DNA from: a virus
Virus record (IMG/VR): IMGVR_UViG_3300035698_030421
Span: 1-46,363 of that record
DNA: 46,363 nucleotides
Direction: 5' to 3' (one strand)
Below, in pieces: positions 4,446 to 44,406 of the stretch. The notes below the pieces were generated by a model that saw nothing but the letters and a program-made list of their open reading frames with translations, made no database searches and was not told where the DNA came from. Each line of letters begins with the position of its first letter. The stretch's first letter is position 1. The position numbers and the translations under genes were made by a program.

Positions 4446-4449
4446 TAGT

Positions 4450-4962: not shown

Positions 4963-5034
4963 AAATTCCTTTTTTTATATATGAGCCTCCAAAACGTCTA
5001 CAAATGAGAGCGGCCTAGAGACCCATGCTAATAA

Positions 5035-5256
5035 TCATTTATTAATTTCTTTTTCAAGAATCGACAAAGAATCTTGAAGCATGTAGTAGTGCTCTTTATA
5101 AGCATCCAACAATTGACTCAATGTTTCTTCATCGGCATTTTTAAGTGGGAAGCTTCGTTCGAGCTGAGATAGGTTCCAAGAAATTTGAGAAACAGTTTTT
5201 AAAGCTGTTCTCATACGAAGAACCTTGCGGTATGTGGTTAGTCTTTCATCTATCAT
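5035..5256 (-). CDS. Small helical protein, unknown function
   Basis: 73 residues, predicted all-helical, with leucines at heptad-like spacing. It is preceded by a perfect sigma70 promoter whose -10 box ends nine bases before the ATG, and no ribosome binding site is visible, so a leaderless mRNA is expected. It lies at the border between the lysis genes and the early operon. Confidence 0.65.
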   Translation of the reverse strand: MIDERLTTYRKVLRMRTALKTVSQISWNLSQLERSFPLKNADEETLSQLLDAYKEHYYMLQDSLSILEKEINK

Positions 5257-17922: not shown

Positions 17923-19278
17923 TTAAAATGCATTATCTACTATAATATTCATATCATTATCCTCGATATATATTTCTGGAGAAAATGGATATTCCTCAGT
18001 TATTGATGTAGTTGTGCTGGTAGTCGTTGAACTGCTTGTTGATGTCGAACTTGAAGTTGAAGTCGATGTGCTAGTAGATGTACTTGTTGAAGTTGAAGTA
18101 GTAGATGTACTAGTTGAGGTTGAGCTTGAGGTTGAAGTTGTTGTGGCGGTAGAATAAGTACAATAAATAGAGCAAATAAAAGTTCGATAATATTCAGGAG
18201 TTAGTGGGTCAGGATATGTAGGAAAGTTATCTGAACTATAAGTATCTTGTGCTGATGTATTAGATGGAGCCCCAGTATCTAATTTAATACTTCTACTGTT
18301 TTCACACCAACTAACAAGCCAATAGTCAATCGCCGTTATTGCAGGAGGAGAAGTAAAATCACATTCAATCCAATCTGGAGTCCAACCAGGGCCCTTTACA
18401 GATTCAGTAGAATCAACAAGGCTAAGGTCAGATTTTTTATACAAAGCACATGAGTTGTCATCAGCCGTACTTGACCCAACAAAAATACTGATACTATCGG
18501 CATTTCCTGCTCCACCAGTAGCCCAGCTCCCATAAATATCATCATTGCTTTGGCCTGAAGCACCTTCGCCAGTCCATCCAAATGTAAGTCCAGCAGCATG
18601 TTTTATTGGATAAACAGCATTGTTTAAAAAATCTTGAGGAATAGTAACTGACAATATTTTATTTTCAACATCAATATTTAATTCTCCCCAAACCCAATTA
18701 CCATTAGAATCTTCAATTCTTGGTCTATAAATATGAAATGCTTTACCAACCCTATACAGCTTACTTCCTGCATAATTTGCAGGACAATTTTTATAATAAA
18801 CAGCATATGACCCAATTATATTTTCAGGTCTGTCAAGACCATTATCAATTTCCTCTTGAGTTAATTCTGGTTGATACCAAAAATCAAGCCCCTTAGTCTC
18901 AATAGACATCTGAATTTTATTTGATTTAGGTTTTTCTTTTAAAATAACCTCAAATTCATAACCTCCTTCTCTTAATTCTTCAGAAGGTGGTAATTGATAA
19001 AATTTTGCTTCTCTTTTGTTTGAAACCCACTTGATTTCTTCATCATTTGATTCAACTACAGAATTATCTTCTTGGTCCAATAATCGAGCTGAAAAATTCA
19101 CCTCGTTGTCCCAACGCATTAATTTTACTTGTGGAAAAAATTTACTTGGTTCTTTAGAATCACCAATTTCAACTTCAATCTTATCTCTCCAATCGCTTTT
19201 CTCAACCCTGCTAAATGTGTTGTCTTTAAGGATATATTTTTCTAATGCTTCTGGAGAGAATTTTGTTTTATCTATCAT
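17923..19278 (-). CDS. Structural/fibre protein with Thr/Ser repeat and shared C-terminal tail
   Basis: 451 residues. The N-terminal ~230 residues are beta-rich and include ENIIGSYAVYYKN, RPRIEDSNGNWVWGELNIDVEN and IPQDFLNNAVYPIKHAAG, a pattern I have seen in metagenomic phage structural proteins. About 235-375 form a further beta domain (FGWTGEGASGQ ... DYWLVSWCENSRSIKLDT). About 379-425 are 47 Thr/Ser residues, and the last 26 residues (EYPFSPEIYIEDNDMNIIVDNAF) parallel the end of the 812-residue neighbour. It is the first tail gene after the terminator that ends the glycan cassette. Confidence 0.7.
   Translation of the reverse strand: MIDKTKFSPEALEKYILKDNTFSRVEKSDWRDKIEVEIGDSKEPSKFFPQVKLMRWDNEVNFSARLLDQEDNSVVESNDEEIKWVSNKREAKFYQLPPSEELREGGYEFEVILKEKPKSNKIQMSIETKGLDFWYQPELTQEEIDNGLDRPENIIGSYAVYYKNCPANYAGSKLYRVGKAFHIYRPRIEDSNGNWVWGELNIDVENKILSVTIPQDFLNNAVYPIKHAAGLTFGWTGEGASGQSNDDIYGSWATGGAGNADSISIFVGSSTADDNSCALYKKSDLSLVDSTESVKGPGWTPDWIECDFTSPPAITAIDYWLVSWCENSRSIKLDTGAPSNTSAQDTYSSDNFPTYPDPLTPEYYRTFICSIYCTYSTATTTSTSSSTSTSTSTTSTSTSTSTSTSTSTSSSTSTSSSTTTSTTTSITEEYPFSPEIYIEDNDMNIIVDNAF
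18004..18144 (-). repeat. Thr/Ser codon repeat, 47 codons
   Basis: Uninterrupted Thr/Ser codons with the same alternating pattern and mixed codon use as the other three repeats of this genome. Confidence 0.95.
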
Positions 19279-19349: not shown

Positions 19350-20312
19350 TTATAGTTCGACAGTGTTTATTTTATGGGTCCTACCTCGAGCAACAGTAGG
19401 ATGGTGGCCTGGTTTTTCCCATAAAGAAGTCCAATTGTTCCACCGATACGAATTGTCAAAAACTATACCTTGTTCTTTTAACTGTTCTTTGGCCTCTTTA
19501 GAAACATCTGGTGAGCCAGAAGAGCCCCACTTGTGGTATACCCAAGAACGAGAGCTAGCAACAAGTCGATATTTTCCCCCTCCCCAATCTGGGTCATAGC
19601 AACGAGCGTTAAAATCATAATCTTCACCGCCACCAGGGTAAAACTTTTCATCAAATAAGCCAACCTTTTCAAGCAAATCAACCCTTATGGTTGTTCCCCA
19701 CATGGCAATGCCGTCAATCCAGCCATGAACTTTATTAATCAGCCAATCGTAACCCTCTGGAGTCCTGCTTTTTTCCAAATCTACCCTATACCCTTGCTCA
19801 TCAAGATAAACAACTCCACGACCATCCTCGGTTAATATTCGCCCCTCTGGTGCTTTCCCGCCATAGCCCCAAGCTGCCTCTTTTGGTGACATTGGGTTCA
19901 CTCCCATGCAGTTTGGCCCAACCATCTTGAAAGTTTCTTTAATCCCTTCCCACCATTTCTTATTAATAAACTCAACATCATCATTGTACAAACTCACAAA
20001 AGGAGTTTCAGATAACCTTATGCCAGTGTTCATAGCCTTAGCAAATCCAAGGTTTCTATATGGCCTCAAGTAAACATGAACATAATCTTTAATCTTGTCA
20101 TAAACCCCAAGTGGCGACTGGTCAATTACAATAACTCTGAAAGTTTCTGGGTCAGTAAATTTGTAAAGACTCTTGAGCATCGGCTCAATCATGTCGTGAC
20201 GAATGATGGGAATAACAAAGGTGTTTTCAACCTGTTTCTTAGTAGTATTTGGGTTAGCTTCAATATTCAAATTAGTTTGAATATCGGAAAACTGGTCTTG
20301 TTGAATGGTCAT
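19350..20312 (-). CDS. Family-2 (GT-A) glycosyltransferase
   Basis: 320 residues. A GT-A core is visible: FVIPIIRHDMIEPMLKSLYK at about 32-51, VIVIDQSP at 60-67, NLGFAKAMNTGI at about 87-98, YNDDVEF with the DD metal-binding motif at about 109-115, and GGGEDYDFNARCY, the ED acceptor-side motif. Such enzymes transfer a sugar from a nucleotide donor to a saccharide or protein acceptor. It is the last gene before the cassette terminator and overlaps the methyltransferase gene by 41 bases. Start supported by GGAGCAAG. Its acceptor is unknown. Confidence 0.88.
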   Translation of the reverse strand: MTIQQDQFSDIQTNLNIEANPNTTKKQVENTFVIPIIRHDMIEPMLKSLYKFTDPETFRVIVIDQSPLGVYDKIKDYVHVYLRPYRNLGFAKAMNTGIRLSETPFVSLYNDDVEFINKKWWEGIKETFKMVGPNCMGVNPMSPKEAAWGYGGKAPEGRILTEDGRGVVYLDEQGYRVDLEKSRTPEGYDWLINKVHGWIDGIAMWGTTIRVDLLEKVGLFDEKFYPGGGEDYDFNARCYDPDWGGGKYRLVASSRSWVYHKWGSSGSPDVSKEAKEQLKEQGIVFDNSYRWNNWTSLWEKPGHHPTVARGRTHKINTVEL

Positions 20313-21339
20313 GACTTGCTCCTATAAACTCGACATTATCCTTGCCGAAAATACTTTTTAATTTATCACTGTAAGTAACCTCGTGGTCGCCACTATGTCC
20401 TTCAAGGAAAAAGTATTCCCGCATAATTTGCGGTAAATAATCTGGCATACCCAACTGTTGAACACTCAAATAAAGAACAATATCAAATTGTTTTTCACCA
20501 GTAAGCTTTTGAATCATGGAATAAACATCCTGGCCCCTATGGTCAAAATTACCTCCAAAATAATCAATATTGAAAAATCCAAGGTGGTTGGACATTTCAA
20601 AAGCTCCAATGATAACTTTGGGCAAATCTAATCCAACAACATATTTTGCACCACGCCTCAAACATTCTTGAGCCATGTGACCACCAGAGCAACCATAGTC
20701 AATAACAGTTTTTCCATTAAAATCAATTTCACTTAGCTTATATGCTTGTAATCTTAAGAAATTTCTCTGGCCATCTATATTCAGCTCTTTTACTGTTTGG
20801 TATGGCTTTGGGTTACTACCCCAAGTAACATTTTCAGAAAATGATTTTTTAAGATAGGTTTTATAAATTTCTTGGTTAAAATTATAATGAGAAAAATCAA
20901 CAATATATTTTTTGTACTGGTGATTAGGGTTTGGGTCAATTGAATCAACTGAAATTCCATATCGACTTCTAACTTGAAGAACCTTTTCAACAAGTGATGG
21001 GTCAAAAATACCACGCTCATCATCTTCTAAAACCTCAATAACTTGTGCATAGTATTTTCTCTCTGGAGTCTCTAAAATAACTACGTCAAAAATTCTGGGG
21101 GCCAACCCATTAAAAGCATATAGATTTTGAATCTTCGTACAATCCATAAAGTTGTTATTCTTCCAAAGAAAAACCCTAACATTATCAGTAAAATTATCAA
21201 TAAAAATTTTAAGGCCCAACCTTCTTTTAGTTCGATTTTCTCCATAATAATCCTCCATTTTAATATCAGTGGAAACATAAGAGTAACTACCTTCTTTAAA
21301 TGATGGCTCTGGTACCTTATTGAGCTTAATTGTTTTCAC
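20272..21339 (-). CDS. SAM-dependent methyltransferase with N-terminal extension
   Basis: 355 residues if started at the GTG at 21339, which has GAGGAA upstream; a TTG at 21354 is also possible. The C-terminal half holds a class I methyltransferase core: KTVIDYGCSGGHMAQECL (motif I), KYVVGLDLP (motif II) and FDIVLYLSVQQLGM (motif IV region). The N-terminal ~165 residues are of unknown fold (VRVFLWKNNNFMDCTKI). Context suggests O-methylation of a glycan or a glycosylated protein, but a protein or small-molecule target cannot be excluded. Confidence 0.8.
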   Translation of the reverse strand: MKTIKLNKVPEPSFKEGSYSYVSTDIKMEDYYGENRTKRRLGLKIFIDNFTDNVRVFLWKNNNFMDCTKIQNLYAFNGLAPRIFDVVILETPERKYYAQVIEVLEDDERGIFDPSLVEKVLQVRSRYGISVDSIDPNPNHQYKKYIVDFSHYNFNQEIYKTYLKKSFSENVTWGSNPKPYQTVKELNIDGQRNFLRLQAYKLSEIDFNGKTVIDYGCSGGHMAQECLRRGAKYVVGLDLPKVIIGAFEMSNHLGFFNIDYFGGNFDHRGQDVYSMIQKLTGEKQFDIVLYLSVQQLGMPDYLPQIMREYFFLEGHSGDHEVTYSDKLKSIFGKDNVEFIGASHDHSTRPVFRYSN

Positions 21340-22435
21340 GTGGATTCCTCGCAATAACTAATATAGAAGTATTTTTATCATCAGAATATCGTTCTTGGTC
21401 TTCTGGACCATAAACATATTTAACTTCATCAACTATAAACATTGAAATAAAATTTTTCCAAGAGTCTTTATCCACAAGCTCTCCTCCACACTTGGCACCG
21501 CTCCCAGGGAAAGCGATTAAAACTCTTCCACCAGGCTTAAGAATCCTGCTAATATTGTGATAAGCAGCGTTTGGGTCTTTAATATTGTCATGCATTCCAA
21601 TAAACAAAATACCATCGTATGAATTATCTGGAATAGCTTGGTCACAAATATTGCCAACAATGTCAGTTCTATTTTCCTCAGTAATTTGGTCAGTTACTTG
21701 TTGAACGTCCATGGTTTTAAAATCACAAAAAAGGCCAGGATTAACAAAGTAGGAACTATATTTCCAAAAACGATGTGTCCCAACTTCAAGTATTTTGTTT
21801 CCATTTTTAAAGAAACTGGCAAATTTTGGCAAAACCTCTGAATGAAGCACCGCCCTTCCTTTGCTTCTCATAAAATTAAATCCTTCTCGTTTGAAAATAT
21901 TTTTCATAGTTAATTCCTTTATTTTTAATAATTCTGGTATTAATTCAACTTCTATATTATCCCAAAAGTGAAAGAAAACAGCTTTGGCCAAAACACCATC
22001 TTTTACTGCCGCTCTAATTCCCACACAATCTGGGTCTGCATAAACTCCATATTTTTCAGAGATAAAATTTACTAACTCTACTCTACCAAATCCATCCCAA
22101 TCATCCCAGCCGTTCCAGGGTAAATACCACCTAGTTGGCCTTACTCCAAAAATACGCTCCATTTCCTTAATACTTTTAATTAAATGCTCTTCAATAACTG
22201 AAACTGATTCCTGTGCGTAATTAAGGTGAATCCAGCCATGTAGTTGCAAATCAAAATCATTAATATTTTGCTTTACATATTGGATAGCCTCACTTTGTTC
22301 ACTTTTAACAACTATATCCATTAACATTGATAAAGTTAGTTTTTTACCACTAGCTTTAAAAAGCTGATGAATTTTTTTGAATTTATCAAAGTTATTACCA
22401 ACTCCCTGTGGAAAGTCATCTAGTCGATATATCAT
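21326..22435 (-). CDS. Polysaccharide deacetylase-like / methyltransferase fusion
   Basis: 369 residues in two parts. Residues about 1-180 look like a NodB-type deacetylase: YRLDDF (Asp pair at 6-7), LHGWIH (His 66 and His 70, the HxxxH metal site), a later RWYLPWNGWDD and a C-terminal His (FFHFWDN). From about 205 a class I methyltransferase follows: KILEVGTHR, SYDGILFIGMHDNI, ISRILKPGGRVLIAF. The enzyme could de-N-acetylate a sugar and methylate the product or a neighbouring position. ATGA-type overlap with the upstream glycosyltransferase. Confidence 0.8.
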   Translation of the reverse strand: MIYRLDDFPQGVGNNFDKFKKIHQLFKASGKKLTLSMLMDIVVKSEQSEAIQYVKQNINDFDLQLHGWIHLNYAQESVSVIEEHLIKSIKEMERIFGVRPTRWYLPWNGWDDWDGFGRVELVNFISEKYGVYADPDCVGIRAAVKDGVLAKAVFFHFWDNIEVELIPELLKIKELTMKNIFKREGFNFMRSKGRAVLHSEVLPKFASFFKNGNKILEVGTHRFWKYSSYFVNPGLFCDFKTMDVQQVTDQITEENRTDIVGNICDQAIPDNSYDGILFIGMHDNIKDPNAAYHNISRILKPGGRVLIAFPGSGAKCGGELVDKDSWKNFISMFIVDEVKYVYGPEDQERYSDDKNTSILVIARNPRENN

Positions 22436-23349
22436 TTCATTAAATTATCTATTTCTTTAAACATTTTATCTTCACTATAATTATCTTTTATTATTTTTCT
22501 AAAAAAACTTCGTGGAGCTTTTAAAAGTTCTACTGCTAATTTAGCAGCTTCACTTGGAGTATTATAAATTAGCTCCTTTGGCCAAACCTCTTTAGACCCA
22601 AACCAGTTATTAATTACAGTAGGAATGCCTTTGGCCATAGCTTCTGCTGCAACATAGGAAAAAGCCTCTTTAAAGGATGAAACAATCATCAAGTCTTTAT
22701 CATTCAGGTAATGGTTCATATCATCAACTGGCCCATCAATAATCACATTAAAACCAAGGTCTTGTGCCCTATATTGAGCATATTTTTTCCACCATCTTGG
22801 GTCATATCCCTCGGTTCTCAAATGAAGGTCCCAAGCTCCTGGCTCAAGTTTATTGAGCTCATAAACAACGTCTATTGCTCCAGCAATATTCTTCCCAATC
22901 CATGCCCTACCAACAAAAACAGCTTTTTTCTTTTCGTGAGGTGGTCGTTTTATTTTCTCGATTAATTTAAAATGTCCAATATTAACTCCAGGGGGAATAA
23001 CCTTAATTTTCTCTGGTGGGCAATTCCACTCTGGTTTACTTTGCATCATTTTTTTATGAGCTTCGTTTAGAAAAATTATATAATCAATTTTATTCCAATC
23101 AAAACGCACGTAATAATTCATGTAATTTTCAACATCAAGAGCTCTAACAATAACCTTCTTTTGCCTTGGCATTTTCTCTGAATAATAAACCACATTAGCT
23201 GCGGCAAAATCATAAAACACCACATCACACTCACTGTGAATTTCAAGGTTACAAATGTGCTTATGCACCGTATGTCCCTGAGCCTCCCAGCGACTTATTA
23301 GTTGCTGAGAAAATTTAAACTTGTTTGGGTCTGCTACTCCTATTATCAT
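22432..23349 (-). CDS. GT-B glycosyltransferase (GT4-like)
   Basis: 305 residues. The C-terminal donor domain shows KIKVIPPGVNIGHF, KAVFVGRAWIGKN and KEAFSYVAAEAMAKGIPTVI with the E-x7-E motif, as in GT4 retaining enzymes. The N-terminal domain is short but includes DVVFYDF and DYIIFLNEAHKKMM. It overlaps the acetyltransferase gene upstream and the deacetylase-fusion gene downstream by four bases each. Confidence 0.86.
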   Translation of the reverse strand: MIIGVADPNKFKFSQQLISRWEAQGHTVHKHICNLEIHSECDVVFYDFAAANVVYYSEKMPRQKKVIVRALDVENYMNYYVRFDWNKIDYIIFLNEAHKKMMQSKPEWNCPPEKIKVIPPGVNIGHFKLIEKIKRPPHEKKKAVFVGRAWIGKNIAGAIDVVYELNKLEPGAWDLHLRTEGYDPRWWKKYAQYRAQDLGFNVIIDGPVDDMNHYLNDKDLMIVSSFKEAFSYVAAEAMAKGIPTVINNWFGSKEVWPKELIYNTPSEAAKLAVELLKAPRSFFRKIIKDNYSEDKMFKEIDNLMK

Positions 23350-23744
23350 AAAAATATATCCTTTCTTTTTTTAGCTGGGCTTCCTGCCCATACCTCATTA
23401 TATGGAACATCTTTAGTGACTATGCTTCCTGCTCCAATTACTGCGTTTCTTCCAATAGTTACCCCTGGTAAAATTATTGCATAACTAGCTATCCATGCTC
23501 CAGACTCAATAGTTACTGGCTTAGAGCCAATAGCTTGCTGCCTATCAATTCCCAAACAACGTATATCATGAGTGCCAGTAAGAATTTTAACACCATGACC
23601 AAAGAAAACCTCATCTTGAATAGTAACTTGCCCTTGACAATCTATTACCCCCTCAAGACCAGGGGCTTTAACATTTTTTCCAATAATAGGTTTTTTTCCT
23701 ATATTTAAGTAAAGATATTTAAAATTAAGATTATTTAATTGCAT
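23346..23744 (-). CDS. Hexapeptide-repeat O-acetyltransferase
   Basis: 132 residues with left-handed beta-helix repeats (VTIQDEVFFGHGVKI, VTIESGAWIASYAIILPGVTIGRNAVIGAGSIVTKDV) and the catalytic His in TGTHDI, ending AGSPAKKRKD, as in maltose/galactoside O-acetyltransferases. It uses acetyl-CoA to acetylate a sugar hydroxyl. It is shorter at the N-terminus than typical ~180-residue members. Placed between two glycosyltransferases, it likely decorates their glycan. Confidence 0.9.
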   Translation of the reverse strand: MQLNNLNFKYLYLNIGKKPIIGKNVKAPGLEGVIDCQGQVTIQDEVFFGHGVKILTGTHDIRCLGIDRQQAIGSKPVTIESGAWIASYAIILPGVTIGRNAVIGAGSIVTKDVPYNEVWAGSPAKKRKDIFL

Positions 23745-24558
23745 CTTCCCATTTTTTAATTTTTATATTCCAATCCCACTTGCTCATGTTTGGGATAACA
23801 AACTCCCTGTCTTTTATTCTTTTTACAAATGCCTGAACAGTTCTTTCCACAATTTGATGTGAGGGAAGTATCTCTGGAGCAACACCAACCTTGGTTGAAA
23901 TAACTGGAATCCCCATAGCCGAAGCTTCCATAATAGGCATTGGATAACCTTCCCAAGATGAAGTACAAACTAAAACATCAATGTGAGAATAGTAATTGGC
24001 CATATCACTATGGTTTTTAACATAATCTTTTTCTTTCAAATGTGGCTTTAAAGTAAAGTGTTTCCCTAGTGGCAAATAAAATTCCTCATATCCTTTTTTC
24101 TCTTTATGGCCAGACATAGCTCCAACCCAGCCCACTCTAGGATTGGGGGGAATCACGACTGTTCCAAAAACTGTTTTCCACTCAAAAACCTTTAAATCAA
24201 CACCAGCCTGAACTTTTTTCACATTATCCCTATAAGCAATATGCTTAAAAGAAATATCAGAAGTAACAAAGGCTCGATAGTACTTAGTAGTATCATAGCC
24301 ATCCATTTCAAACTGCTCGTGAAAAATGCAAATGGTTTTTTCATAAGGAATATTTTTCCAATTCATCCAAGGAGCAAACAATATTATTCTGTCATATTGG
24401 TCAAAATCAAGTTCCTCTTTGGGCAAATCTTTTCCTCGATATTTTCGATAGTCACACTCATATTTAATATCATAGTCATGTTTACCAAATCTTTTTACCG
24501 CTTGAGCAATATGGTCAAAAGCCCAACCTGGAAAATTAGGCATTAATAAAATTTTCAT
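23731..24558 (-). CDS. GT-B glycosyltransferase (GT4-like), short
   Basis: 275 residues. The donor domain contains RVGWVGAMSGHKEKKG, IDVLVCTSSWEGYPMPIMEASAMGIPVISTKVGVAPEIL (in pieces: SSWEGYPMP, then E-x7-E) and ends KIKKWEDAI. The N-terminal acceptor domain is about 130 residues (YDRIILFAPWMNWKN, ICIFHEQF). It is smaller than most GT4 enzymes (350-400 residues). Overlaps upstream methyltransferase by four bases. Confidence 0.85.
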   Translation of the reverse strand: MKILLMPNFPGWAFDHIAQAVKRFGKHDYDIKYECDYRKYRGKDLPKEELDFDQYDRIILFAPWMNWKNIPYEKTICIFHEQFEMDGYDTTKYYRAFVTSDISFKHIAYRDNVKKVQAGVDLKVFEWKTVFGTVVIPPNPRVGWVGAMSGHKEKKGYEEFYLPLGKHFTLKPHLKEKDYVKNHSDMANYYSHIDVLVCTSSWEGYPMPIMEASAMGIPVISTKVGVAPEILPSHQIVERTVQAFVKRIKDREFVIPNMSKWDWNIKIKKWEDAIK

Positions 24559-25076
24559 AGTTTATATCCGTAATCTGGATGCTCCCAACCTACCAGTGGC
24601 TTATCATCAACAGCTCTTTTTTTAACTGCTGATATTCTGGCATCTCTGCTACCATCGTACCAAGTCTTTAAAACTTCAAAATCACTTCCAATTTGTTTAA
24701 TAACCTCTTCCATTGTTAGCCCTACAAAATGATAATTTCCATCTCTGTCTTGATTCCCAAAAAGAAGTTGAGAGAATCTATCAATATTTTTATTTTTAGA
24801 ATACTCCGCAAATAATCTCTCACAATCAGGGAACCTTAACTTTAAAATGCCACCAGGCTTTAAAACTCGTTTCCAATCATCTAAAACCTGCCTCCAAACT
24901 CTCCAAGATACATGCTCTAAAATATCCTTAGCAAAAACCTCATCAACCGACTCATTTTCAAAAGGAAGCTTATCTGTTACATCATGAGCCAAATCAACTC
25001 CATCATTAGCATAAAAGTCAATATTTATATATCCCTCAAGTATTATTGGTCCACATCCTATATTCAGTTTTTTCAT
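24555..25076 (-). CDS. Small class I SAM methyltransferase
   Basis: 173 residues. Motif I KLNIGCGP at 3-10, acidic motif II NIDFY at 18-22, motif IV DEVFAKDILEHV at about 46-57 and post-motif RVLKPGGILKLRFP at about 69-82 define a methyltransferase of the type common in glycan clusters. The target is unknown; a sugar hydroxyl is likely by context. Overlaps both neighbours by four bases. Confidence 0.88.
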   Translation of the reverse strand: MKKLNIGCGPIILEGYINIDFYANDGVDLAHDVTDKLPFENESVDEVFAKDILEHVSWRVWRQVLDDWKRVLKPGGILKLRFPDCERLFAEYSKNKNIDRFSQLLFGNQDRDGNYHFVGLTMEEVIKQIGSDFEVLKTWYDGSRDARISAVKKRAVDDKPLVGWEHPDYGYKL

Positions 25077-25801
25077 GAATTTCCTAAAAAATCATTTGTA
25101 ACTTGTTTTAAATCATCCACTGGCATTGGCCAAATTGGATTATGTCCATGGTCTTTTACCTCCATATCTCCATAGCCCCAATTCCCATCTTCTCCAAAAA
25201 GGTGCCAACACCTAATGTTAGTGGCCCAACCAACTTTCCAATTTTTTGCTCTCATTCGTTTACTAATCCAAAGTTCTTCATGGCCTCTTAATTCTCTTTT
25301 ATCTTTCCAGGCTCCAAGCCCACAAACAAGGTTTGTGTCCATAATCCTCATGTACCCTGGCACATGAGAAAATTCAGTTACATCCTTAGAAGCATCTGAA
25401 AAAACCTCCTTCTCATTTGTACCGACCAAAATTTGCGGTCGAAGAGCAATCGCCCCATACTCAGGATTCTCTTCCATAAGCTTGATAAGACGTTCAAGCC
25501 AGTCCATTCCATTATCAATTCGTTTAGGCACCAAAATATCATTGTCAGTAGAAATAAAATAACTAGATTCAACAAATTGCATTCCCAAGTGCTTAGCTGC
25601 TTCAAGGCCGATGTTCCTATCAAGCTTGATGTAAATATCTGATTGACTTGCATAAACTTCCCTTGCTTCTTCACTAGACCCATTATCAATAAGAATAAGT
25701 CTGTAAGGATAATTAGTATTTTTTCGCAATGCTCTCAAAACAAGAATAGTAAATTCCTCTCGCTTCCAAGTGGTCATTACAATATCAATTGGTTTTTTCA
25801 T
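25073..25801 (-). CDS. Family-2 (GT-A) glycosyltransferase
   Basis: 242 residues. PIDIVMTTWKREEFTILVLRAL at the N-terminus, LILIDNGSSEE at about 35-45, NIGLEAAKHLGM at 63-74 and the DXD-type motif STDND at 84-88. LRGHEELWISKRM (about 176-188) fits the acceptor-side ED/HEE region. Inverting GT-A enzyme acting in the cassette; donor and acceptor unknown. Confidence 0.88.
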   Translation of the reverse strand: MKKPIDIVMTTWKREEFTILVLRALRKNTNYPYRLILIDNGSSEEAREVYASQSDIYIKLDRNIGLEAAKHLGMQFVESSYFISTDNDILVPKRIDNGMDWLERLIKLMEENPEYGAIALRPQILVGTNEKEVFSDASKDVTEFSHVPGYMRIMDTNLVCGLGAWKDKRELRGHEELWISKRMRAKNWKVGWATNIRCWHLFGEDGNWGYGDMEVKDHGHNPIWPMPVDDLKQVTNDFLGNS

Positions 25802-25979
25802 TTTCTATTTCTTTTTTAATAAATTCTTTAAATACTAAAACAAAAGCTCTTGGAAAATTAATATTTTGATTCATTTCATTAGTTACTTCAATTTCAAGAA
25901 TTGTAGCAATTTGTTGAAAACTCATGTTAGCTTCTATAAGTGATTCAAATTTATAAAAGATTTTATCTATGTCTATCAT
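25785..25979 (-). CDS. Small helical protein in the glycan cassette, unknown function
   Basis: 64 residues from the ATG at 25979, preceded by GGGAGAACAGGG and overlapping the TGA of the gene upstream (ATGA). Helical, mixed charge (DKIFYKFESLIEANMSFQQI). No recognised domain. Confidence 0.65.
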   Translation of the reverse strand: MIDIDKIFYKFESLIEANMSFQQIATILEIEVTNEMNQNINFPRAFVLVFKEFIKKEIENEKTN

Positions 25980-26188
25980 TCCCTGTTCTCCCAAGGCTTA
26001 TTACCTTTTAAATATGTAAGAGCTACACCGATTCTCATACGAGCATCTTGAGCATGTCTGAGAGCAATGTTAATTTCTTCATGAGCTGGAATTGGCATCA
26101 TTGCCTTTAAAGTTTCTAACTTTCCAATTGTTTTAGAAAGCCTTCCTCTTAATTGCAAACATTTTTGTTCAGCATTGTCTGTATTCAT
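25976..26188 (-). CDS. Small two-helix protein, possibly of the Acb2/Tad1 hairpin type
   Basis: 70 residues predicted as a helical hairpin: helix 1 about 8-30 (KCLQLRGRLSKTIGKLETLKAM), a proline turn (MPIPAHEE), helix 2 about 38-60 (INIALRHAQDARMRIGVALTYL). The second helix with AxxxxQxARMxxGxAL resembles small phage proteins I associate with the Acb2/Tad1 cyclic-nucleotide sponge fold. The resemblance is weak and made from memory; another helical hairpin function is equally possible. Overlaps neighbours by four bases on each side. Confidence 0.45.
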   Translation of the reverse strand: MNTDNAEQKCLQLRGRLSKTIGKLETLKAMMPIPAHEEINIALRHAQDARMRIGVALTYLKGNKPWENRE

Positions 26189-26889
26189 AATTTCCTTTCA
26201 CCCCTAATTTCTACAATATATGGGGATGTATTAATATGTTGTGGTTCAAAATGTCGAGTTAGCATATAGAACATGGCCCAATCATCACCCCATGGATTGC
26301 CCAAATCATCCTTGTCGCCATACATTGCCTCAACTTCTCTATATCTAAGTTTCATTTCACGGCCAAATTCATATGGGTCATTTGTCTCTGGTAAGAAGCC
26401 AGTTTGTTGCAAACATTCTTTTTTAAACATGAAACCACCGCTCATCACATCACCAGACTTAAACTCTTCTAATTTAAGATGTTGCTTAGACATTCTGACT
26501 TGAGACTCCCACTTATTCCAAGTAACAATGCCTCCAAAATTAAAAACCTTTTTATCTGGGTATTTTTCAATAGCCTGATTCATTACCTCTAAATAATAGG
26601 GAAGATAATAGTCATCAGCATCAAGCCAACAAATCCATTCACCCTCGGCAGCTCTCATGCCATCATTTCTTGAAAAAGCTCGTTGTTTAGCAATGTCGTG
26701 TTTTATGACTCTAAGGCGAGGCTGTAACTTCTCTATAAACGGCTTTAGAGCATCAAACGTGCCATCAACAGAGCCATCATCAACAATGATGTGCTCCCAA
26801 TCGGTAAAAGACTGATTAAGCACACTCAACACGTTTCTTTTAATTGTTTTTTCGCTATTGTGAGCTGGGGTAATAATTGAAAATTTCAT
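26185..26889 (-). CDS. Family-2 (GT-A) glycosyltransferase
   Basis: 234 residues of a textbook GT2 enzyme: FSIITPAHNSEKTIKRNVLSVLNQ, IIVDDGSVDGT with DDGS at 37-40, a helix FSRNDGMRAAEGEW, and the metal-binding CWLDADD at 88-93. Transfers a sugar from a nucleotide donor. Overlaps both neighbours by four bases, so it is co-translated with the cassette. Confidence 0.92.
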   Translation of the reverse strand: MKFSIITPAHNSEKTIKRNVLSVLNQSFTDWEHIIVDDGSVDGTFDALKPFIEKLQPRLRVIKHDIAKQRAFSRNDGMRAAEGEWICWLDADDYYLPYYLEVMNQAIEKYPDKKVFNFGGIVTWNKWESQVRMSKQHLKLEEFKSGDVMSGGFMFKKECLQQTGFLPETNDPYEFGREMKLRYREVEAMYGDKDDLGNPWGDDWAMFYMLTRHFEPQHINTSPYIVEIRGERKL

Positions 26890-27206
26890 AATTTGACTCC
26901 CTGTATTTTATTTCTATGTTGATAAGCGTTACCTACTACCAAAATACTGTGCATCGGTTTTAAATGTTTGCCCAAATTCCACCCCATTCTCTTATAGTCC
27001 CAATCAACAATTATGTATTTTACATCAGACGGCTCAATTAAATTCCTGATACAAACAATGTCGTGCTCATAAATTCTTTTGCCCTGATAGTCATGTTTTC
27101 CAGTAAATTCATTCTCAATATCTCCAATACCACAACCTTCGTTTTCACGCCTAAATCGCTTTTTCCCCTTGGACCATGTACGGCGGTTAGTCTTTCTTAT
27201 TTGCAT
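26886..27206 (-). CDS. YopX-like protein
   Basis: 106 residues. Residues about 33-55 read EFTGKHDYQGKRIYEHDIVCI, the YopX/DUF1064-style pattern (F/YTG-x-D-x-x-GK-x-I-Y-E-x-DIV), and the C-terminus has ILVVGNAYQHRN, matching the usual VVGNIYEN end. The N-terminus is basic (RKTNRRTWSKGKKRFRR). YopX-like proteins are frequent phage beta-barrel proteins without known function. Its place inside the glycan cassette is odd. Confidence 0.75.
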   Translation of the reverse strand: MQIRKTNRRTWSKGKKRFRRENEGCGIGDIENEFTGKHDYQGKRIYEHDIVCIRNLIEPSDVKYIIVDWDYKRMGWNLGKHLKPMHSILVVGNAYQHRNKIQGVKL

Positions 27207-27486
27207 TTTCTTTTGCTTTCAACTCTTGTTGCTCTTTTTTAGCTTTCAATTCTTGCTGCTTTTTCTTAACATCAAAACCATCAGGAACAGTAAACTCAAG
27301 AACAATGGAATTATTTTTACCAGGAACTTTTCTTATAGATAACAACTCTGGGTAAAAACCAATGTGTTCAATAAAGTTAATAGCAAGCAAATTTCTACCA
27401 ACTTTATCTTTAAGTTTAAACTCGTCACTTCTAAATAATCGAGGTTTTTTTACCCCTGGTTTATTTTTTTTTGGCAACGTATTCAT
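27187..27486 (-). CDS. Small basic protein in the glycan cassette, unknown function
   Basis: 99 residues; a basic N-terminus (KKNKPGVKKPRLFR), a small alpha/beta middle (NLLAINFIEHIGFYPELLSI, SIVLEFTVPDGF) and a Lys/Gln/Glu helix at the C-terminus (two tandem KKQQELKA/KKEQQELKA repeats). Overlaps the dehydrogenase gene by 26 bases and the YopX-like gene by 20. Not recognised. Confidence 0.6.
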   Translation of the reverse strand: MNTLPKKNKPGVKKPRLFRSDEFKLKDKVGRNLLAINFIEHIGFYPELLSIRKVPGKNNSIVLEFTVPDGFDVKKKQQELKAKKEQQELKAKENANKKD

Positions 27487-28252
27487 AGTTGAGTTTCTCT
27501 ACTAATTGTAACAATGGTTTTTGAAACTTACGATTAAAAGCCTTATTATCTTTTGGCAAACACATTCCTCCAAATCCACGTTTCCCATCCAATCCCACAT
27601 CAAGGTGATTTTCACCAATCCATTTTCTCCTGTACAAAGCTTCTTTGACTACTTCATAATCAGCAGGATTTTCCTCACCATCACAAACATCATAAATAGT
27701 TTCTCCGAAAATAACCTTCATGGCATAAAAATTATTAATGGCCAATTTAATCATTTCAGAAGTATCAGTATTTGTATGTATATAATGTGTATCTTTACTT
27801 TTAACTGCTTCTTTATAAAGTCCCAAAACCTCTTCTCCAAAAGACTTCATTTCATCGCTACCAACAACTACCAAGTCAGGGTTAAAAGTATCTTGGCCAA
27901 TTGTCCTCATGGTCAAAAACTCTGGGTTATGAACCATGCACTTAATACCAAGTTGGTCATTAATATTCCTAGTAGTACCAGGGATAACAGTCGAGCGATT
28001 AATGTAAATTTTTTGACCACCTCCAAGTTGCTCAATCTGCCTAACAATCTCTAAAATATGTTTAGTTTCATATCCATGCTCAGTATTAGGGGTAGGAAGA
28101 CAGAGGAAAACATACCTCTTCTTTTCAGCAATTTCCTTGAGAGTCATCGTAGAATCATTGAGGGCAAAATAATCATCAATTTTAAACAACTTCCTAGTGG
28201 CTCCGCCAATTATTCCAGTTCCACCGATGACTACTGCATTATCTAATTTCAT
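27461..28252 (-). CDS. Nucleotide-sugar dehydrogenase, C-terminally short
   Basis: 263 residues from the ATG that overlaps the upstream TGA. It has the signatures of the UDP-glucose/GDP-mannose dehydrogenase family: NAD site GGTGIIGG at 10-17, YINRSTVIPGTT, HNPEFL, EMIKLAINNFYAMKV (Lys 170, Asn 173/174) and the catalytic Cys in GFGGMCLPKD (C231). Family members oxidise a UDP- or GDP-hexose at C6 to a uronic acid. Typical enzymes are about 400-440 residues; the C-terminal nucleotide-binding domain is absent here, so either a partner supplies it or the substrate differs. Confidence 0.82.
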   Translation of the reverse strand: MKLDNAVVIGGTGIIGGATRKLFKIDDYFALNDSTMTLKEIAEKKRYVFLCLPTPNTEHGYETKHILEIVRQIEQLGGGQKIYINRSTVIPGTTRNINDQLGIKCMVHNPEFLTMRTIGQDTFNPDLVVVGSDEMKSFGEEVLGLYKEAVKSKDTHYIHTNTDTSEMIKLAINNFYAMKVIFGETIYDVCDGEENPADYEVVKEALYRRKWIGENHLDVGLDGKRGFGGMCLPKDNKAFNRKFQKPLLQLVEKLNYEYVAKKK

Positions 28253-28458
28253 ACTTTTTCGTTCCAAAATTCTTTATCTTTTTCTACATCAGACTTTGAA
28301 AAGGCATACAAATGCTCTACATCAAGACCCTTGGCACAAACTGCACAAAAGCAAATATATCTTTTTTCATGTGGCAAGTTTAGAATAGCTTTTCCTCCTA
28401 GCAAATCATTGCCACATCTACTACATATTGTTGGGACTGTCTCAATTCTTTTAGGCAT
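28249..28458 (-). CDS. Zinc-binding small protein in the glycan cassette
   Basis: 69 residues with CSRCGN near residue 12 and CFCAVC near residue 36, enough for one zinc site. Overlaps the first glycosyltransferase gene by eight bases and the dehydrogenase by four. Function unknown. Confidence 0.7.
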   Translation of the reverse strand: MPKRIETVPTICSRCGNDLLGGKAILNLPHEKRYICFCAVCAKGLDVEHLYAFSKSDVEKDKEFWNEKV

Positions 28459-29779
28459 AAATTAATGGTTCCAAGTTATTTTTTAATACTGCGTTTAAAT
28501 TCCTGTTTTTTCTCAAGTGAATCTGCATGGCCAAACTTGGGTCATATCTCAAGTGATAAGCAATTTTAGCTGCTGTCCCATGATGATAACGAGCCTCAAA
28601 ATCTTTACGAGCATATTCAGGAGCATCGTCTGGACCATATTTAGTATTGGTTCTACTATCTTTTCCATAAGTCTCAGCCAAATCAGCCATCACATCCCAA
28701 TTACTTGCATATTTCTTGTAAATAGCATTAGGTCCATAAATATCTCTCATTGGAGGGAAGTCTTGATTAAGCACCATGACTGCTCCGCCGACTCCAGCTT
28801 CTTGGGCAGTAAGAGAATATGTTTCACTAACAGAAGAATGAATATAAACATTTGAATATTGAAGCCATTTAGTAACTTGCTCCCAAGATACTCTGGTTTT
28901 CCACGATTCATCGAACTCAGAGGCAAAGATAAGCTCTTTGGAACTTAGCTTTAGGTCAATGCCTAAGTTTTTTAATTCTTCTCTATAAGAAACCTTATCG
29001 CCTCCAGTTGAATGGAAATCAAAAATAATCAATCTTACACTCATATTAATCTTCTTCAACTCGGCCATGGTCTTAATTACCATCTCAACCTGTTTTCCTC
29101 TATCGAGGCGTATTGGATACACACATACCGCATCTGCACCAGCAATGTCTTTCTCGTTAAATAATCTGGTAGAAACTTCATCAAATCCATAATAAGCAGC
29201 TAAGTCAATTGGATGTGGAACAACCTTAACTTTTTCCGCACCAACATTAAAGTTTCTAGCAATAGACTCAGTTGAGATATTGTTAAAAGCAACATAGAAC
29301 GAATTTGGGAATGGTTTTTCAATAAGTTTTAAATATTCTTCTTGGAAGAATGGCCTCAAATTGGCCAGGGTATAAGGAGCAGTTGCACTATGAATCCAAT
29401 GCATCCACTTGATATTTGGAAGTTCAGCAGCAATTTTGCGAGCAGCTAGGTTATGTTTTAAAGCGGCTGGCTGATAAATATAGTCATGAGTTAAAACAAC
29501 GTCAATATCTTTTAAATGTTCTTTTAAAGAAACATAAAGTTTTTCTACATCAGCATCGAAAGTATCATCTTTCTTAATAACATTGTGACAATTAACAGCA
29601 GGAATTTTTCTAATTTCAGCATCTTTGTAAGCTTCAATCGGTTTAAAATGCTCAGAAACAATAACAACGGGTTGAAAACCTCCCATTTTAAGCATTTTAA
29701 TTTGGTCTTGAACGACTCTGTTGAGAGAGTAAGCTGGGTCAGCAGCATTAAAATTGGTAGCAATACATACTTTTTTCAT
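28451..29779 (-). CDS. GT-B glycosyltransferase (GT4-like), first gene of the cassette
   Basis: 442 residues. Rossmann-like N-domain (CIATNFNAADPAYSLNRVVQDQIKML, DVVLTHDYIYQPAA, MHWIHSATAPYTL) and C-domain with KVKVVPHPIDLAAYYG, VCVYPIRLDRGKQVEMVIK and SVSETYSLTAQEAGVGGAVMVL, the E-x7-E region of GT4 enzymes. It is the promoter-proximal gene of the cassette, with an AGGAA ribosome binding site. Substrates unknown. Confidence 0.87.
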   Translation of the reverse strand: MKKVCIATNFNAADPAYSLNRVVQDQIKMLKMGGFQPVVIVSEHFKPIEAYKDAEIRKIPAVNCHNVIKKDDTFDADVEKLYVSLKEHLKDIDVVLTHDYIYQPAALKHNLAARKIAAELPNIKWMHWIHSATAPYTLANLRPFFQEEYLKLIEKPFPNSFYVAFNNISTESIARNFNVGAEKVKVVPHPIDLAAYYGFDEVSTRLFNEKDIAGADAVCVYPIRLDRGKQVEMVIKTMAELKKINMSVRLIIFDFHSTGGDKVSYREELKNLGIDLKLSSKELIFASEFDESWKTRVSWEQVTKWLQYSNVYIHSSVSETYSLTAQEAGVGGAVMVLNQDFPPMRDIYGPNAIYKKYASNWDVMADLAETYGKDSRTNTKYGPDDAPEYARKDFEARYHHGTAAKIAYHLRYDPSLAMQIHLRKNRNLNAVLKNNLEPLIYA

Positions 29780-39079: not shown

Positions 39080-39277
39080 TTAATTTTTAATATCATTGTC
39101 CTCCTCTAAAATTTCTACCATTTTACTCATCACAATATCAAAATCTTGTTTTCCCAACAAGACGGCGACTGGCTTTTTTCTCTGAGTCAAGTAAATAACT
39201 TCGCCATTTTTGGCATCATTAATATTTTTGGATATATTTTCGTTGAACTCAACGATGGACATGTTAGTTATGTTCAT
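39080..39277 (-). CDS. Phd/YefM-family antitoxin-like protein without a toxin
   Basis: 65 residues. MSIVEFNENISKNINDAKNG and EVIYLTQRKKPVAVLLGKQDF (about residues 6-46) are the dimerisation/DNA-binding fold of Phd/YefM antitoxins, which repress their own operon and neutralise a toxin. The C-terminal toxin-binding helix is short (KMVEILEEDNDIKN), and no RelE/Doc toxin gene is adjacent. It may protect against host toxin-antitoxin defence or act as a regulator. GGAGG precedes the ATG, which overlaps the small terminase stop region. Confidence 0.8.
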   Translation of the reverse strand: MNITNMSIVEFNENISKNINDAKNGEVIYLTQRKKPVAVLLGKQDFDIVMSKMVEILEEDNDIKN

Positions 39278-39830
39278 TTATTACCTCCGCTTCTTGGGCA
39301 TCACCCCTCATAATTGCAAATAATTCTCGTTGCTGTTCATCAAGTTTTTTCAAACCTTTTTTCAACTCAGTCGCTGTCATTTTAACGGCAGCTTGTTCGA
39401 TTGAATCCTCAAGAGATTTGTTTCTTTGAGTACCTAAATACCCTTTAACTTTCAAGAACATCTCAATACCTTTCAAGGCGTTGGCTGGAGTAGCATCAGA
39501 AAGGTTCTTGCTCCCCGCATCAATAATTTCCTTCAAAGCTCCAACCGCAAAATCTTCATCTAGGTTCATTTTCTTGAGTGCAATATCAAGAGCCTTTTGA
39601 ATCTTGGGAAGCTTTAAAATAGTATGGCCCAAATTAGAATTAAACTTCTCCTTGCCATCATAAGCCACTCGAGCAGCCTCAGTAGCATTACCAGTTTTTA
39701 GATATTCAATCACAAACTTTTTTTGTTTGAGAGTTAATTTCCTTTTCCTAGTTTCTTGAATATGTGCCCTGACCTTGGGACTAGTTAGTATTTTACGGCC
39801 AAATTTTCTGCCGTGGCTACCTCTAGGCAT
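39264..39830 (-). CDS. terS: Terminase small subunit
   Basis: 188 residues. LTLKQKKFVIEYLKTGNATEAARVAY at about 33-58 is the N-terminal HTH of the terminase_2 small-subunit family, which recognises the packaging site. A helical middle follows (ALDIALKKMNLDEDFAVGALKEII) and a C-terminal oligomerisation region. First substantial gene of the late leftward operon; GAGGA precedes the start. Confidence 0.9.
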   Translation of the reverse strand: MPRGSHGRKFGRKILTSPKVRAHIQETRKRKLTLKQKKFVIEYLKTGNATEAARVAYDGKEKFNSNLGHTILKLPKIQKALDIALKKMNLDEDFAVGALKEIIDAGSKNLSDATPANALKGIEMFLKVKGYLGTQRNKSLEDSIEQAAVKMTATELKKGLKKLDEQQRELFAIMRGDAQEAEVINEHN

Positions 39831-40084: not shown

Positions 40085-40113
40085 TTTATCTCATAAGAGT
40101 AGGCGTTTGTCAA
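40085..40113 (-). promoter_or_regulatory. Leftward promoter, inverted copy of the 40958 promoter
   Basis: Minus strand TTGACA (40113-40108), 17 bp, GATAAA (40090-40085). Its sequence from TATTGACAAA through CTACTCTTATG matches the rightward promoter at 40958-40986 almost base for base. It points to the terminase operon and may be its main promoter. Confidence 0.7.
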
Positions 40114-40198
40114 TACTTTTTGTCAATATTGCACCTCGTTTTTTTTAGTGTAATAATGAGAGCAATGAGAAATTCTTTTATAAAATTTAAGAAAATAG

Positions 40199-40240
40199 AA
40201 CCTAGTTACTGCGGGAGGAGTAGCTAGGTTTTGTCTTTTT
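40199..40240 (+). terminator. Long-stem hairpin with U-rich tail
   Basis: AACCTAG-T-TACT (40199-40210) pairs with AGTA-G-CTAGGTT (40219-40230), a 12-bp stem with one T-G wobble and loop GCGGGAGG, followed by TTGTCTTTTT. This looks like a rightward intrinsic terminator. The loop is ribosome-binding-site-like, so a regulatory RNA hairpin is an alternative. Confidence 0.72.
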
Positions 40241-40950
40241 GATAATGAGTCTGGGGGTTTAAATAGGCTGAATCGACTTAACCCAAATAAAGTAGCCTAA
40301 CCAAAACTTGATGCGTTCCAGACAGCACTCTGGAAAGTCGGAAATAAGCTTTGGACCTGCGGGAAAGTGAGAGGTGCCCTTTTGAACAATAGGTTAGGCC
40401 CTCTCCCCCTGAGTGAAAAAGTCTCAGGTGGCTTTGATACAAGGAGTAATGATCTTGTTTACGCCAATGTAATTGTTCGAAGCTACAAGCTTCATCTTCT
40501 TCTCTTAACTGTAAGGGGGGTACCCTCTTATCTCGAGTCAAAAATCAATAGATTTCCAAAAACTAGTAACAAGTTACAGGCTAGCCAAGCAGCTTGAGGC
40601 ATGTTGCAATGTCTGGGGCAAAATGTTGCTGGAGATTTGTGTCACTCTCAGTGAGGGGCCCCTGGGTTCCTAACATCCATAGTCGAGGGTGGGGGGGGTC
40701 AAACTATGTCTCATGTCGCACAATATACCTTATGCGACACATGTACCAGGCTACAAGCTCCAAACAACAAGCAACTAGCCACTAGCAACAGGGCACATGC
40801 ACCCAATTGACATGGTATGAGCACCTAGCAACATGTAGCATGGTATGAGTAATATAGTAGTTTGTGACCTTAAGTCCCACGCTTCAAGCTCACACCCCAC
40901 CTACGCACCCACTACTTACAGCCCATTGAATATAGCCACAAGGTACATAA
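40241..40950 (+). ncRNA. Candidate large structured non-coding RNA region
   Basis: About 0.7 kb without a convincing gene on either strand, more GC-rich than its surroundings and full of complementary segments. Hairpins include TTCCAGA/TCTGGAA (40316-40335), CCTGAG/CTCAGG (40408-40428), GAAGCT/AGCTTC (40479-40493), TCACT/AGTGA (about 40642-40654) and TGTCGCA/TGCGACA (40714-40739). CCTAACC (40296-40302) pairs with GGTTAGG (40392-40398), crossing the stem GAGAGG/CCTCTC (40369-40374, 40400-40405): a pseudoknot. Also present are a G8 run (40691-40698), the palindrome AGGGGCCCCT and a direct repeat CATGGTATGAG (40811-40821, 40839-40849). Large ornate phage RNAs such as GOLLD and ROOL have this size; I cannot match either from memory. 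An origin is an alternative. Confidence 0.5.
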
Positions 40951-40957
40951 CAGACTA

Positions 40958-40986
40958 TTGACAAATGACTACTCTTATGGTATAGT
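40958..40986 (+). promoter_or_regulatory. Rightward early promoter
   Basis: TTGACA (40958-40963), 17 bp, TATAGT (40981-40986). It leads the rightward operon whose first gene starts at 41022 with an AAAGG ribosome binding site. Near-identical inverted copy at 40085-40113. Confidence 0.88.
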
Positions 40987-41764: not shown

Positions 41765-41861
41765 TTACTAGATGAAGGGTGCAAGCTTACTTGTGCCCCT
41801 CACTGTAGCAATTAGATGAATGCCACTGGCTACAGGTGGCACGATGAAAGGTTATATTTTT
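41765..41861 (+). promoter_or_regulatory. Hairpin-rich leader of the clamp-like gene
   Basis: Two hairpins precede the gene at 41862: GGTGCAAG/CTTGTGCC (about 41778-41798, two G-U pairs) and TGCCAC/GTGGCA (41821-41826, 41836-41841). AAAGG follows ten bases before the chosen ATG. Confidence 0.45.
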
Positions 41862-42329
41862 ATGACAAATAAAATCATAGCTATCGCCCAAGTGGTAGAC
41901 AATAAAAGCTATAAAATAGCATTGACTTGCGTCAACTTCACAGGCAAGGAGGCAGTAACAACCGATGGCTTTATCTTGGCTAAGACTCCATGCGAGAGCA
42001 AGCCAATCAAGCTTGACGCTCAGCCCATTGCTAAAATGAAGAAGAATCATCTTCTAGATATAGAAAGCGGGAAAATAACAGACTTCAAAACTGTTACTGT
42101 ACTCGACCAGTTAGAGCTTGAATATCCCGATTATAAGAAAATCATTCCAACGGGCAACACTCATTTATCTGTAGGGTTGGGGCTTAATGTTCTAGAAAAG
42201 CTAGTCAAAGTCATGAAGAAGAATGGTGATAGCCACATTAAGCTTGATTTTAACAAAGACAGCTTGAAGGCAATCACTGGAACCTTGAAAGATATTGAAT
42301 TGGTTATAATGCCATTTAGAATAGATTAA
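41862..42329 (+). CDS. Reduced beta sliding-clamp (DnaN)-like protein
   Basis: 155 residues from ATG 41862 (AAAGG upstream); ATGs at 41820 and 41844 are possible. Features reminiscent of the bacterial beta clamp: GKEAVTTDGFILAKTP (about 28-43, compare AVATDGHRLA), LELEYPDYKKIIPTG (83-97) and the C-terminal LVIMPFRID, like the clamp's terminal YVVMPMRL. E. coli DnaN is 366 residues with three domains; this is less than half, so a ring would need more subunits or it may be a mimic that diverts host clamp partners. No phage polymerase is seen. Confidence 0.65.
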   Translation: MTNKIIAIAQVVDNKSYKIALTCVNFTGKEAVTTDGFILAKTPCESKPIKLDAQPIAKMKKNHLLDIESGKITDFKTVTVLDQLELEYPDYKKIIPTGNTHLSVGLGLNVLEKLVKVMKKNGDSHIKLDFNKDSLKAITGTLKDIELVIMPFRID

Positions 42330-43917: not shown

Positions 43918-44406
43918 TTATTTAAACCATTGATAATACTCCTGTTTTTCACTATCGTTGATAACTAATATTGGTAGCCCAGCCTTAACTCTTTGCCAGT
44001 TCATGAAAATACGGCCAGTGCGACCGTTGCCATCAACAAAGGGGTGGATATGTTCGTAAGAAACGTGCCAAAATTTAGAGGCATCCTCTTTACATTGAAC
44101 AGAGGCATTGACTGCCTTACACCACGATTGAATCGACTCATTGATTTGAGAATAGTGTTGCCCCTCTCTACCGCCAACCCAAACAGGGACAGTTCTAAAA
44201 TATCCCTTCTCATCTGGCATGAGTGGTTGGTGAAGCATGAGGATTTTGTGAGTCTTTAGAATGACTCCAGGGCTCATCTTCTCTTGGCCGATACAATACT
44301 CCCAAGCCAACTTAGCTTGTTTAAAGCTTTTCCCATCGTAAACACCTTCAATGGCGTTACTTTCCTCTAGGAATCGGTTGAGATTTTTGTTTTGTTTTTT
44401 TGGCAT
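43918..44406 (-). CDS. Fic-domain protein with N-terminal inhibitory motif
   Basis: 162 residues. The Fic signature HPFVDGNGRTGR at 121-132 is complete, with catalytic His 121; Fic enzymes usually transfer AMP (or another phosphoryl group) from a nucleotide to a protein hydroxyl. The N-terminus has SNAIEG at 16-21, matching the (S/T)xxxE(G/N) inhibitory helix of class II Fic proteins, which blocks ATP until released. The flap region PVWVGGREG (about 74-82) is also visible. Likely a regulated modifier of a host protein during infection. AAAGGAA precedes the ATG. Confidence 0.92.
   Translation of the reverse strand: MPKKQNKNLNRFLEESNAIEGVYDGKSFKQAKLAWEYCIGQEKMSPGVILKTHKILMLHQPLMPDEKGYFRTVPVWVGGREGQHYSQINESIQSWCKAVNASVQCKEDASKFWHVSYEHIHPFVDGNGRTGRIFMNWQRVKAGLPILVINDSEKQEYYQWFK

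What the first reader, a model, noticed from the sequence alone, without database searches (positions are those of the whole stretch)
40241..40950. 0.7-kb ornate non-coding region: possible large phage RNA
No convincing gene, many perfect hairpins, and a 7-bp long-range pairing (40296-40302 with 40392-40398) that crosses a stem (40369-40374 with 40400-40405). The region follows a terminator and precedes the early promoter. Large structured RNAs (GOLLD, ROOL) are known from phages and have this size; this may be one or a new class.
Basis: partly seen in the sequence, partly recalled or inferred. Interest (0 to 1): 0.7.

Follow-up and report, generated by a model that had tools for sequence, protein, structure and literature searches.

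The report
Phage structured RNA beside host dif
This non-coding stretch of a phage genome appears to encode a previously undescribed folded RNA of about 270 bases, and it also carries a copy of the recombination site that its probable hosts, the tiny Patescibacteria (CPR bacteria), seem to use to separate chromosome dimers.

Summary
The region is non-coding and its first ~270 nt are a conserved structured RNA, but it is not a 0.7-kb ornate RNA. One relative, L003 (large terminase 75% identical), keeps the fold while rewriting the sequence: 10 of 14 pairs in two helices change on both sides; 9 of 12 hairpins recur in place (2.2 expected, p<0.001); alifold z reaches -8.3 against -2.9 at worst in 41 coding control windows. 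The 40474-40581 block is structured on the + strand only. No Rfam family matches, GOLLD and ROOL included. The 3' half (40540-40950) is not unusually structured. It holds a G-tract shared by four related phages and a 24-bp palindrome (40715-40738) that is single-copy in about 42% of sampled Patescibacteria genomes and absent from 248 genomes of another phylum. It has the 11-6-11 layout of a dif site and is identical to a Parcubacteria chromosomal copy; the phage has no detected recombinase of its own. I read the region as the control and maintenance region of a Patescibacteria phage: a stand-alone RNA, possibly replication-linked, plus a borrowed host Xer site. Transcription and function are unproven.

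The parts
40085..40113 (-). Putative late promoter TTGACA-17-GATAAA reading towards the small terminase; its core is an inverted copy of the early promoter
   Evidence: Inverted repeat 40087-40115 / 40956-40984, 86% complementary; sequence
40195..40240 (+). Terminator-like hairpin with U-tract, upstream of the RNA
40241..40246 (+). Candidate -10 box GATAAT for the RNA; no -35 recognised
   Evidence: Read from sequence; unverified
40253..40520 (+). Core of the conserved structured RNA
   Evidence: Alifold z-scores, pair counts, shared hairpins
40255..40284 (+). Helix P1: 40255-40259 with 40280-40284; crosses helix A to give a probable H-type pseudoknot with loop AAAUAAAG
   Evidence: Sequence of window and L003; inferred, two bases out of register in L003
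40264..40299 (+). Helix A: 40264-40270 with 40293-40299 (L003 UGUAGAG/CUCUACA), five of seven pairs changed on both sides
40316..40335 (+). Hairpin H2 with conserved loop CAGCAY, five of seven pairs changed on both sides
40369..40405 (+). Stem GAGAGG (40369-40374) with CCUCUC (40400-40405); AGGGGG/CCUCCU in L003 with a one-base shift
   Evidence: register judged by eye
40408..40428 (+). Hairpin CCUGAG/CUCAGG (L003 CCUUAAGA/UCUUAAGG)
40439..40458 (+). Hairpin ACAAG/CUUGU with conserved loop motif AGUAA (L003 CAUAG/CUAUG)
40479..40493 (+). Hairpin GAAGC/GCUUC
40499..40520 (+). Hairpin rich in G-U pairs around CUUAACUG (L003 has a similar one in place); gives the + strand preference
40687..40700 (+). 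G-tract GGGTGGGGGGGGTC, found at the same place in L003, L283 and L285
   Evidence: enrichment near phage palindromes
40713..40740 (.). dif-like site, ATGTCGCACAA-TATACC-TTATGCGACAC (24-bp palindrome 40715-40738)
40743..40891 (+). Degenerate repeats GTNCCANGCTNCAAGCTC (40743-40760, 40874-40891; a further copy at 40475-40492)
   Evidence: role unknown
40958..40986 (+). Early promoter TTGACA-17-TATAGT

Best explanation
The intergenic region between the divergent late and early modules of a Patescibacteria phage holds two separate things. (1) A structured RNA on the + strand, core about 40253-40520, which probably opens with an H-type pseudoknot and continues with hairpins whose sequences change while their pairing is kept. 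Shown: conserved pairing and, for its last block, strand preference. Inferred: that it is transcribed, from just before 40253. (2) A copy of the host dif site at 40713-40740. Shown: same sequence class as a single-copy Patescibacteria chromosomal site, identical 24-mer in a Parcubacteria MAG, no tyrosine or serine recombinase detected in the phage. Inferred: host Xer recombinase acts on it, to resolve phage genome multimers and/or to integrate at host dif. For the job of the RNA I commit only weakly (about 0.3) to a role in starting replication: a folded transcript that runs into the conserved G-tract and stays hybridised there as a primer, as in ColE1 RNA II. The stated confidence is for the two-part identification, not for the primer role.
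For: RNA: RNAalifold z -8.3 (40243-40369) and -6.6 on + against +1.1 on - (40474-40581); coding control of the same two phages, 41 windows, lowest z -2.9; 10 of 14 pairs double-changed, while sliding partners by 1-3 columns leaves at most 1; 9 of 12 hairpins in place in L003 against 2.2 expected. dif: genome hits almost all Patescibacteria; one place in each of 12 of 12 genomes; 152 of 362 genomes at <=1 mismatch, nearly all single, reversed-pattern control 0; one place in 22 of 23 phage records; in a control phylum only the genome chosen for its hit matched; PF00589 in 8 of 9 hosts and none in three phage records; no PF00239. Primer guess: G-tract in four relatives, clamp-like protein 41820-42329, no polymerase or initiator among the larger ORFs scanned.
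Against: Only two sequences support the RNA; R1 finds no third. No clear -35 for its promoter and no terminator after it. Most stems outside the last hairpin are Watson-Crick only, so the 5' half does not itself choose between strands (z -8.3 and -8.6). The terminus position of the chromosomal site is not convincing: about 60 kb from the GC-skew switch in one complete genome and about 220 kb in the other. The G-tract could instead be a packaging site, being next to terS. Nothing tests primer formation.
Confidence: 0.7

Rival explanations
1. The RNA is a long 5' leader of the early genes (cis-acting), for instance an antitermination or other control element, read through the dif site and early promoter into 41022 onwards.
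For: Same strand as the early genes and no terminator-like site reported between the core and the early genes apart from a weak one at 40479-40493.
Against: A strong separate promoter at 40958 would make early transcripts without it; the leader would be about 770 nt.
Confidence: 0.25
2. The RNA is a stand-alone trans-acting or structural phage RNA (regulator, decoy, or packaging-motor RNA) with no link to replication.
For: Complex fold with conserved loops (CAGCAY, AGUAA) and a probable pseudoknot; lies beside terS.
Against: No partner or target known; no relative in Rfam.
Confidence: 0.3
3. The conserved fold acts as single-stranded DNA at a replication origin rather than as RNA.
For: The 5' half scores equally on both strands (z -8.3 and -8.6) and its stems are almost all Watson-Crick.
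Against: The 40474-40581 block is structured on the + strand only, through G-U pairs; the A-rich crossing loop is typical of RNA pseudoknots (general knowledge).
Confidence: 0.13
4. The palindrome and G-tract are parts of a packaging (cos) site, not a dif site.
For: They lie next to terS in the window and L003, and the G-tract is enriched near the palindrome in phages (74 of 116 vs 48 of 500) but hardly near chromosomal copies (24 of 118 vs 78 of 518).
Against: The palindrome is a single-copy chromosomal sequence in 152 of 362 Patescibacteria genomes, which a phage packaging site would not be; this argues only for the G-tract being cos.
Confidence: 0.1
5. Chance: hairpins and alignment artefacts in an AT/GC-mixed intergenic region.
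Against: Double changes, in-place hairpins and z-scores far outside the controls.
Confidence: 0.05

Closest known systems
GOLLD and ROOL large phage RNAs (Rfam)
   Same: Structured non-coding RNA in a phage intergenic region
   Different: No match to either model; core about 270 nt; no tRNA in the window
ColE1 RNA II replication primer
   Same: Folded RNA of a few hundred nt followed by a G-stretch; host-dependent replication (analogy from general knowledge)
   Different: No sequence relation shown; promoter and primer formation not established
dif/Xer sites, especially single-recombinase systems (XerH, XerS, Legionella XerL; PMC5357621, PMC9765430)
   Same: About 28 bp, 11-6-11 palindrome, single copy per chromosome; several hosts show one Xer-type protein
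   Different: Own sequence class; no description in Patescibacteria found in the held library
IMEX, mobile elements exploiting Xer, such as VGJphi, CTXphi and LME-1 (PMC5357621, PMC9765430)
   Same: Carries a host dif mimic and no detected recombinase of its own
   Different: A tailed dsDNA phage of about 46 kb with terminase and portal, probably infecting Patescibacteria; integration not shown

Membership tests
GOLLD / ROOL / any Rfam family | Covariance-model score at gathering threshold | tested here: not met
   0 matches in window and L003; permissive search gives only chance-level hits
Conserved structured non-coding RNA | Compensatory changes that preserve helices in a homologue | tested here: met
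   10 of 14 pairs double-changed; 0 of 500 shuffles as high; slid structures at most 1
Conserved structured non-coding RNA | Is transcribed | not testable with these tools
   No expression data available
dif site | Two about 11-bp inverted arms around a 6-bp centre | tested here: met
   Base profile over 114 phage sites; definition from PMC5357621
dif site | One copy per chromosome, conserved across a taxon | tested here: met
   12 of 12 single; 152 of 362, nearly all single; control phylum negative
dif site | Lies near the replication terminus | tested here: inconclusive
   Two complete genomes sampled: about 60 kb and about 220 kb from the skew switch
dif site | Host encodes a Xer-type recombinase | tested here: met
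   PF00589 in 8 of 9 hosts tested; xer-like genes 1.4 and 6 kb from the site in G006 and G005
dif site | Recombined by Xer | not testable with these tools
   Needs a biochemical or genetic assay
IMEX (Xer-exploiting mobile element) | dif mimic on the element and no recombinase of its own | tested here: met
   Site at 40713-40740; no PF00589 or PF00239 in the contig, which may be incomplete
IMEX (Xer-exploiting mobile element) | Found integrated at host dif | not tested
   No close relative of this phage was found in 380 Patescibacteria genomes
ColE1-type RNA primer origin | Promoter, folded RNA, G-stretch, RNase H cleavage to a primer | tested here: inconclusive
   Folded RNA and G-stretch present; promoter weak; cleavage not testable

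The most novel reading that the evidence does not exclude
A new RNA class in phages of Patescibacteria acts in starting phage replication, next to a conserved G-tract and a captured host dif site, so that phage copies are made by host machinery and kept as monomers by host Xer.
Probability: 0.22. Interest if true: 0.82.

Novelty: new variant of a known kind. Interest (0 to 1): 0.62.

Why it matters
It gives an undescribed phage RNA with direct covariation support, and a simple sequence signature (GTCGCACAATNTANNTTNTRCGAC) that appears to mark the dif site of much of the Patescibacteria and of many phages that probably infect them. The signature could help to assign phages to these largely uncultured hosts without CRISPR spacers, and it makes Xer-dependent phage maintenance in the candidate phyla radiation directly testable.

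Tried and rejected
Rfam at gathering and permissive thresholds, on window and L003: nothing credible. DNA similarity to known phages and plasmids: chance only. IMG/VR pattern scans on conserved RNA blocks: only L003, otherwise chance. TerL relatives L283-L285 do not hold the RNA by nhmmer or by R1 (L283 also with filters off). The TerL search of 380 Patescibacteria genomes gave two distant matches only. R1 over 381 genomes of one class found nothing. I first took the palindrome for an RNA hairpin; its occurrence in unrelated phages and, once each, in chromosomes showed it to be a DNA site. A protein-coding reading was rejected for lack of a convincingly conserved frame. The 3' half as RNA was rejected. 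An earlier count gave the palindrome as 40719-40742; the correct position is 40715-40738.

Full report
What was checked. The stretch 40241-40950 lies between a minus-strand late block that begins with the small terminase (39264-39830, Terminase_2) and plus-strand early genes. It holds only small ORFs. The promoter core recurs as an inverted copy at 40087-40115, so the region sits between two divergent promoters.

Homologue. One IMG/VR contig, L003, has a large terminase 75% identical and a corresponding gene order around the region. Its intergenic region (reverse strand 4190-5120) aligns with the window in short blocks separated by variable sequence. No other homologue was found by pattern scans, terminase searches or model R1, so the comparison rests on two sequences.

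The RNA. RNAalifold against column-shuffled alignments gives z -8.3 for 40243-40369, -4.6 for 40280-40419 and -6.6 for 40474-40581 on the + strand; for the last block the minus strand gives +1.1, while the first block scores the same on both strands. The coding stretch terS to terL of the same two phages gives no window below -2.9. Helix A (40264-40270 with 40293-40299) and hairpin H2 (40316-40335) have 14 pairs, 10 of them changed on both sides; sliding the partners by 1-3 columns leaves at most one. Hairpins of at least 5 bp sit at the same place in both phages nine times out of twelve, with 2.2 expected and none of 1000 shuffles as high. A short helix P1 (40255-40259 with 40280-40284; L003 GGGGA/UCCCC) crosses helix A, so the RNA probably begins with an H-type pseudoknot containing the A-rich loop AAAUAAAG; this is inferred, because P1 is two bases out of register in L003. 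Folding energy alone would not have revealed the RNA (z -1.6). The + strand is preferred mainly because the last hairpin (40499-40520) uses G-U pairs in both phages. No Rfam family matches.

The 3' half. From 40540 to 40950 the sequence folds like shuffled sequence. It contains a G-tract (40687-40700) found at the corresponding place in L003, L283 and L285, and the palindrome GTCGCACAATATACCTTATGCGAC at 40715-40738.

The palindrome. The profile over 114 sites is RYGTCGCACAA - 6 bp - TTNTRCGACRY, an 11-6-11 layout; most of the core was fixed by the scan, so only the positions left open are informative. A scan of genomes of 84,980 prokaryote species again stopped at its limit, with nearly all named records in Patescibacteria. 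Twelve of 12 such genomes hold it at one place. In a sample of 362 Patescibacteria genomes 152 match with at most one mismatch, nearly all once, while the reversed pattern matched none. In 249 genomes of another phylum only the genome that had been chosen for its hit matched. Of 23 phage records, 22 hold it at one place. The window's 24-mer is identical to that of a Parcubacteria MAG (L291) and of G153. Hosts encode a Xer-type recombinase (8 of 9), while the contigs of the window, L003 and L283 do not; the window also shows no serine recombinase. This is what a dif site carried by phages should look like. The expected terminus position is not established: two complete genomes gave distances of roughly 60 and 220 kb from the GC-skew switch. 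Near phage sites the G-tract is enriched (74 of 116 against 48 of 500), near chromosomal sites hardly (24 of 118 against 78 of 518).

Mechanism. Shown: conserved RNA pairing, and the presence of a Patescibacteria-type dif site. Inferred: host Xer resolves phage multimers or integrates the phage. Weakly inferred: the RNA serves the start of replication, because it precedes a conserved G-tract and the 46-kb contig shows a clamp-like protein, RusA and an exonuclease but no polymerase or initiator among the larger proteins scanned. A cis-regulatory leader and a trans-acting RNA remain nearly as likely.

Known kinds. The site works like the dif mimics of IMEX elements (PMC5357621, PMC9765430). The held library gave no description of such a site in Patescibacteria, though most subscription papers are not held, so absence there is weak evidence of novelty. 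The RNA belongs to no family in Rfam 15.

Noticed in passing
L283:7679-10264: The large terminase ORF of this relative is interrupted by an intein-like insertion (861 aa in all).
   Followed up: no
window 15481-17919 and 17923-19278: Proteins carry very long Thr/Ser-only repeat tracts, with a strong local GC-skew reversal at 15-17 kb.
   Followed up: no
window 19350-29779: A cluster of genes that look like glycosyltransferases, methyltransferases, an acetyltransferase and a sugar dehydrogenase inside a phage genome, perhaps for surface modification; judged from the ORF sequences only.
   Followed up: no
window 43918-44406: Fic/DOC-family protein (PF02661, E 2.3e-13).
   Followed up: no
window 3888-4175: Small protein with three NUMOD3 motifs (PF07460, E 1.2e-16), a motif usually found with homing endonucleases.
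   Followed up: no
L106, L118, L125 and other viral loci around the palindrome: A motif TAACAGGGGT(A/C) recurs on either side of the dif-like site in several phage contigs and may bind an accessory protein.
   Followed up: no
G112 (C21, C26), G154 (C1, C3), G256 (C6, C7): A few Patescibacteria genomes hold two copies of the site, which could mark integrated elements, extra replicons or contamination.
   Followed up: no
L283 reverse strand, about 5690-5660: The relative L283 has a near-perfect + strand promoter (TTGACA-17-TATAAA) upstream of its own hairpin-rich intergenic region, which model R1 does not recognise as this RNA.
   Followed up: partly
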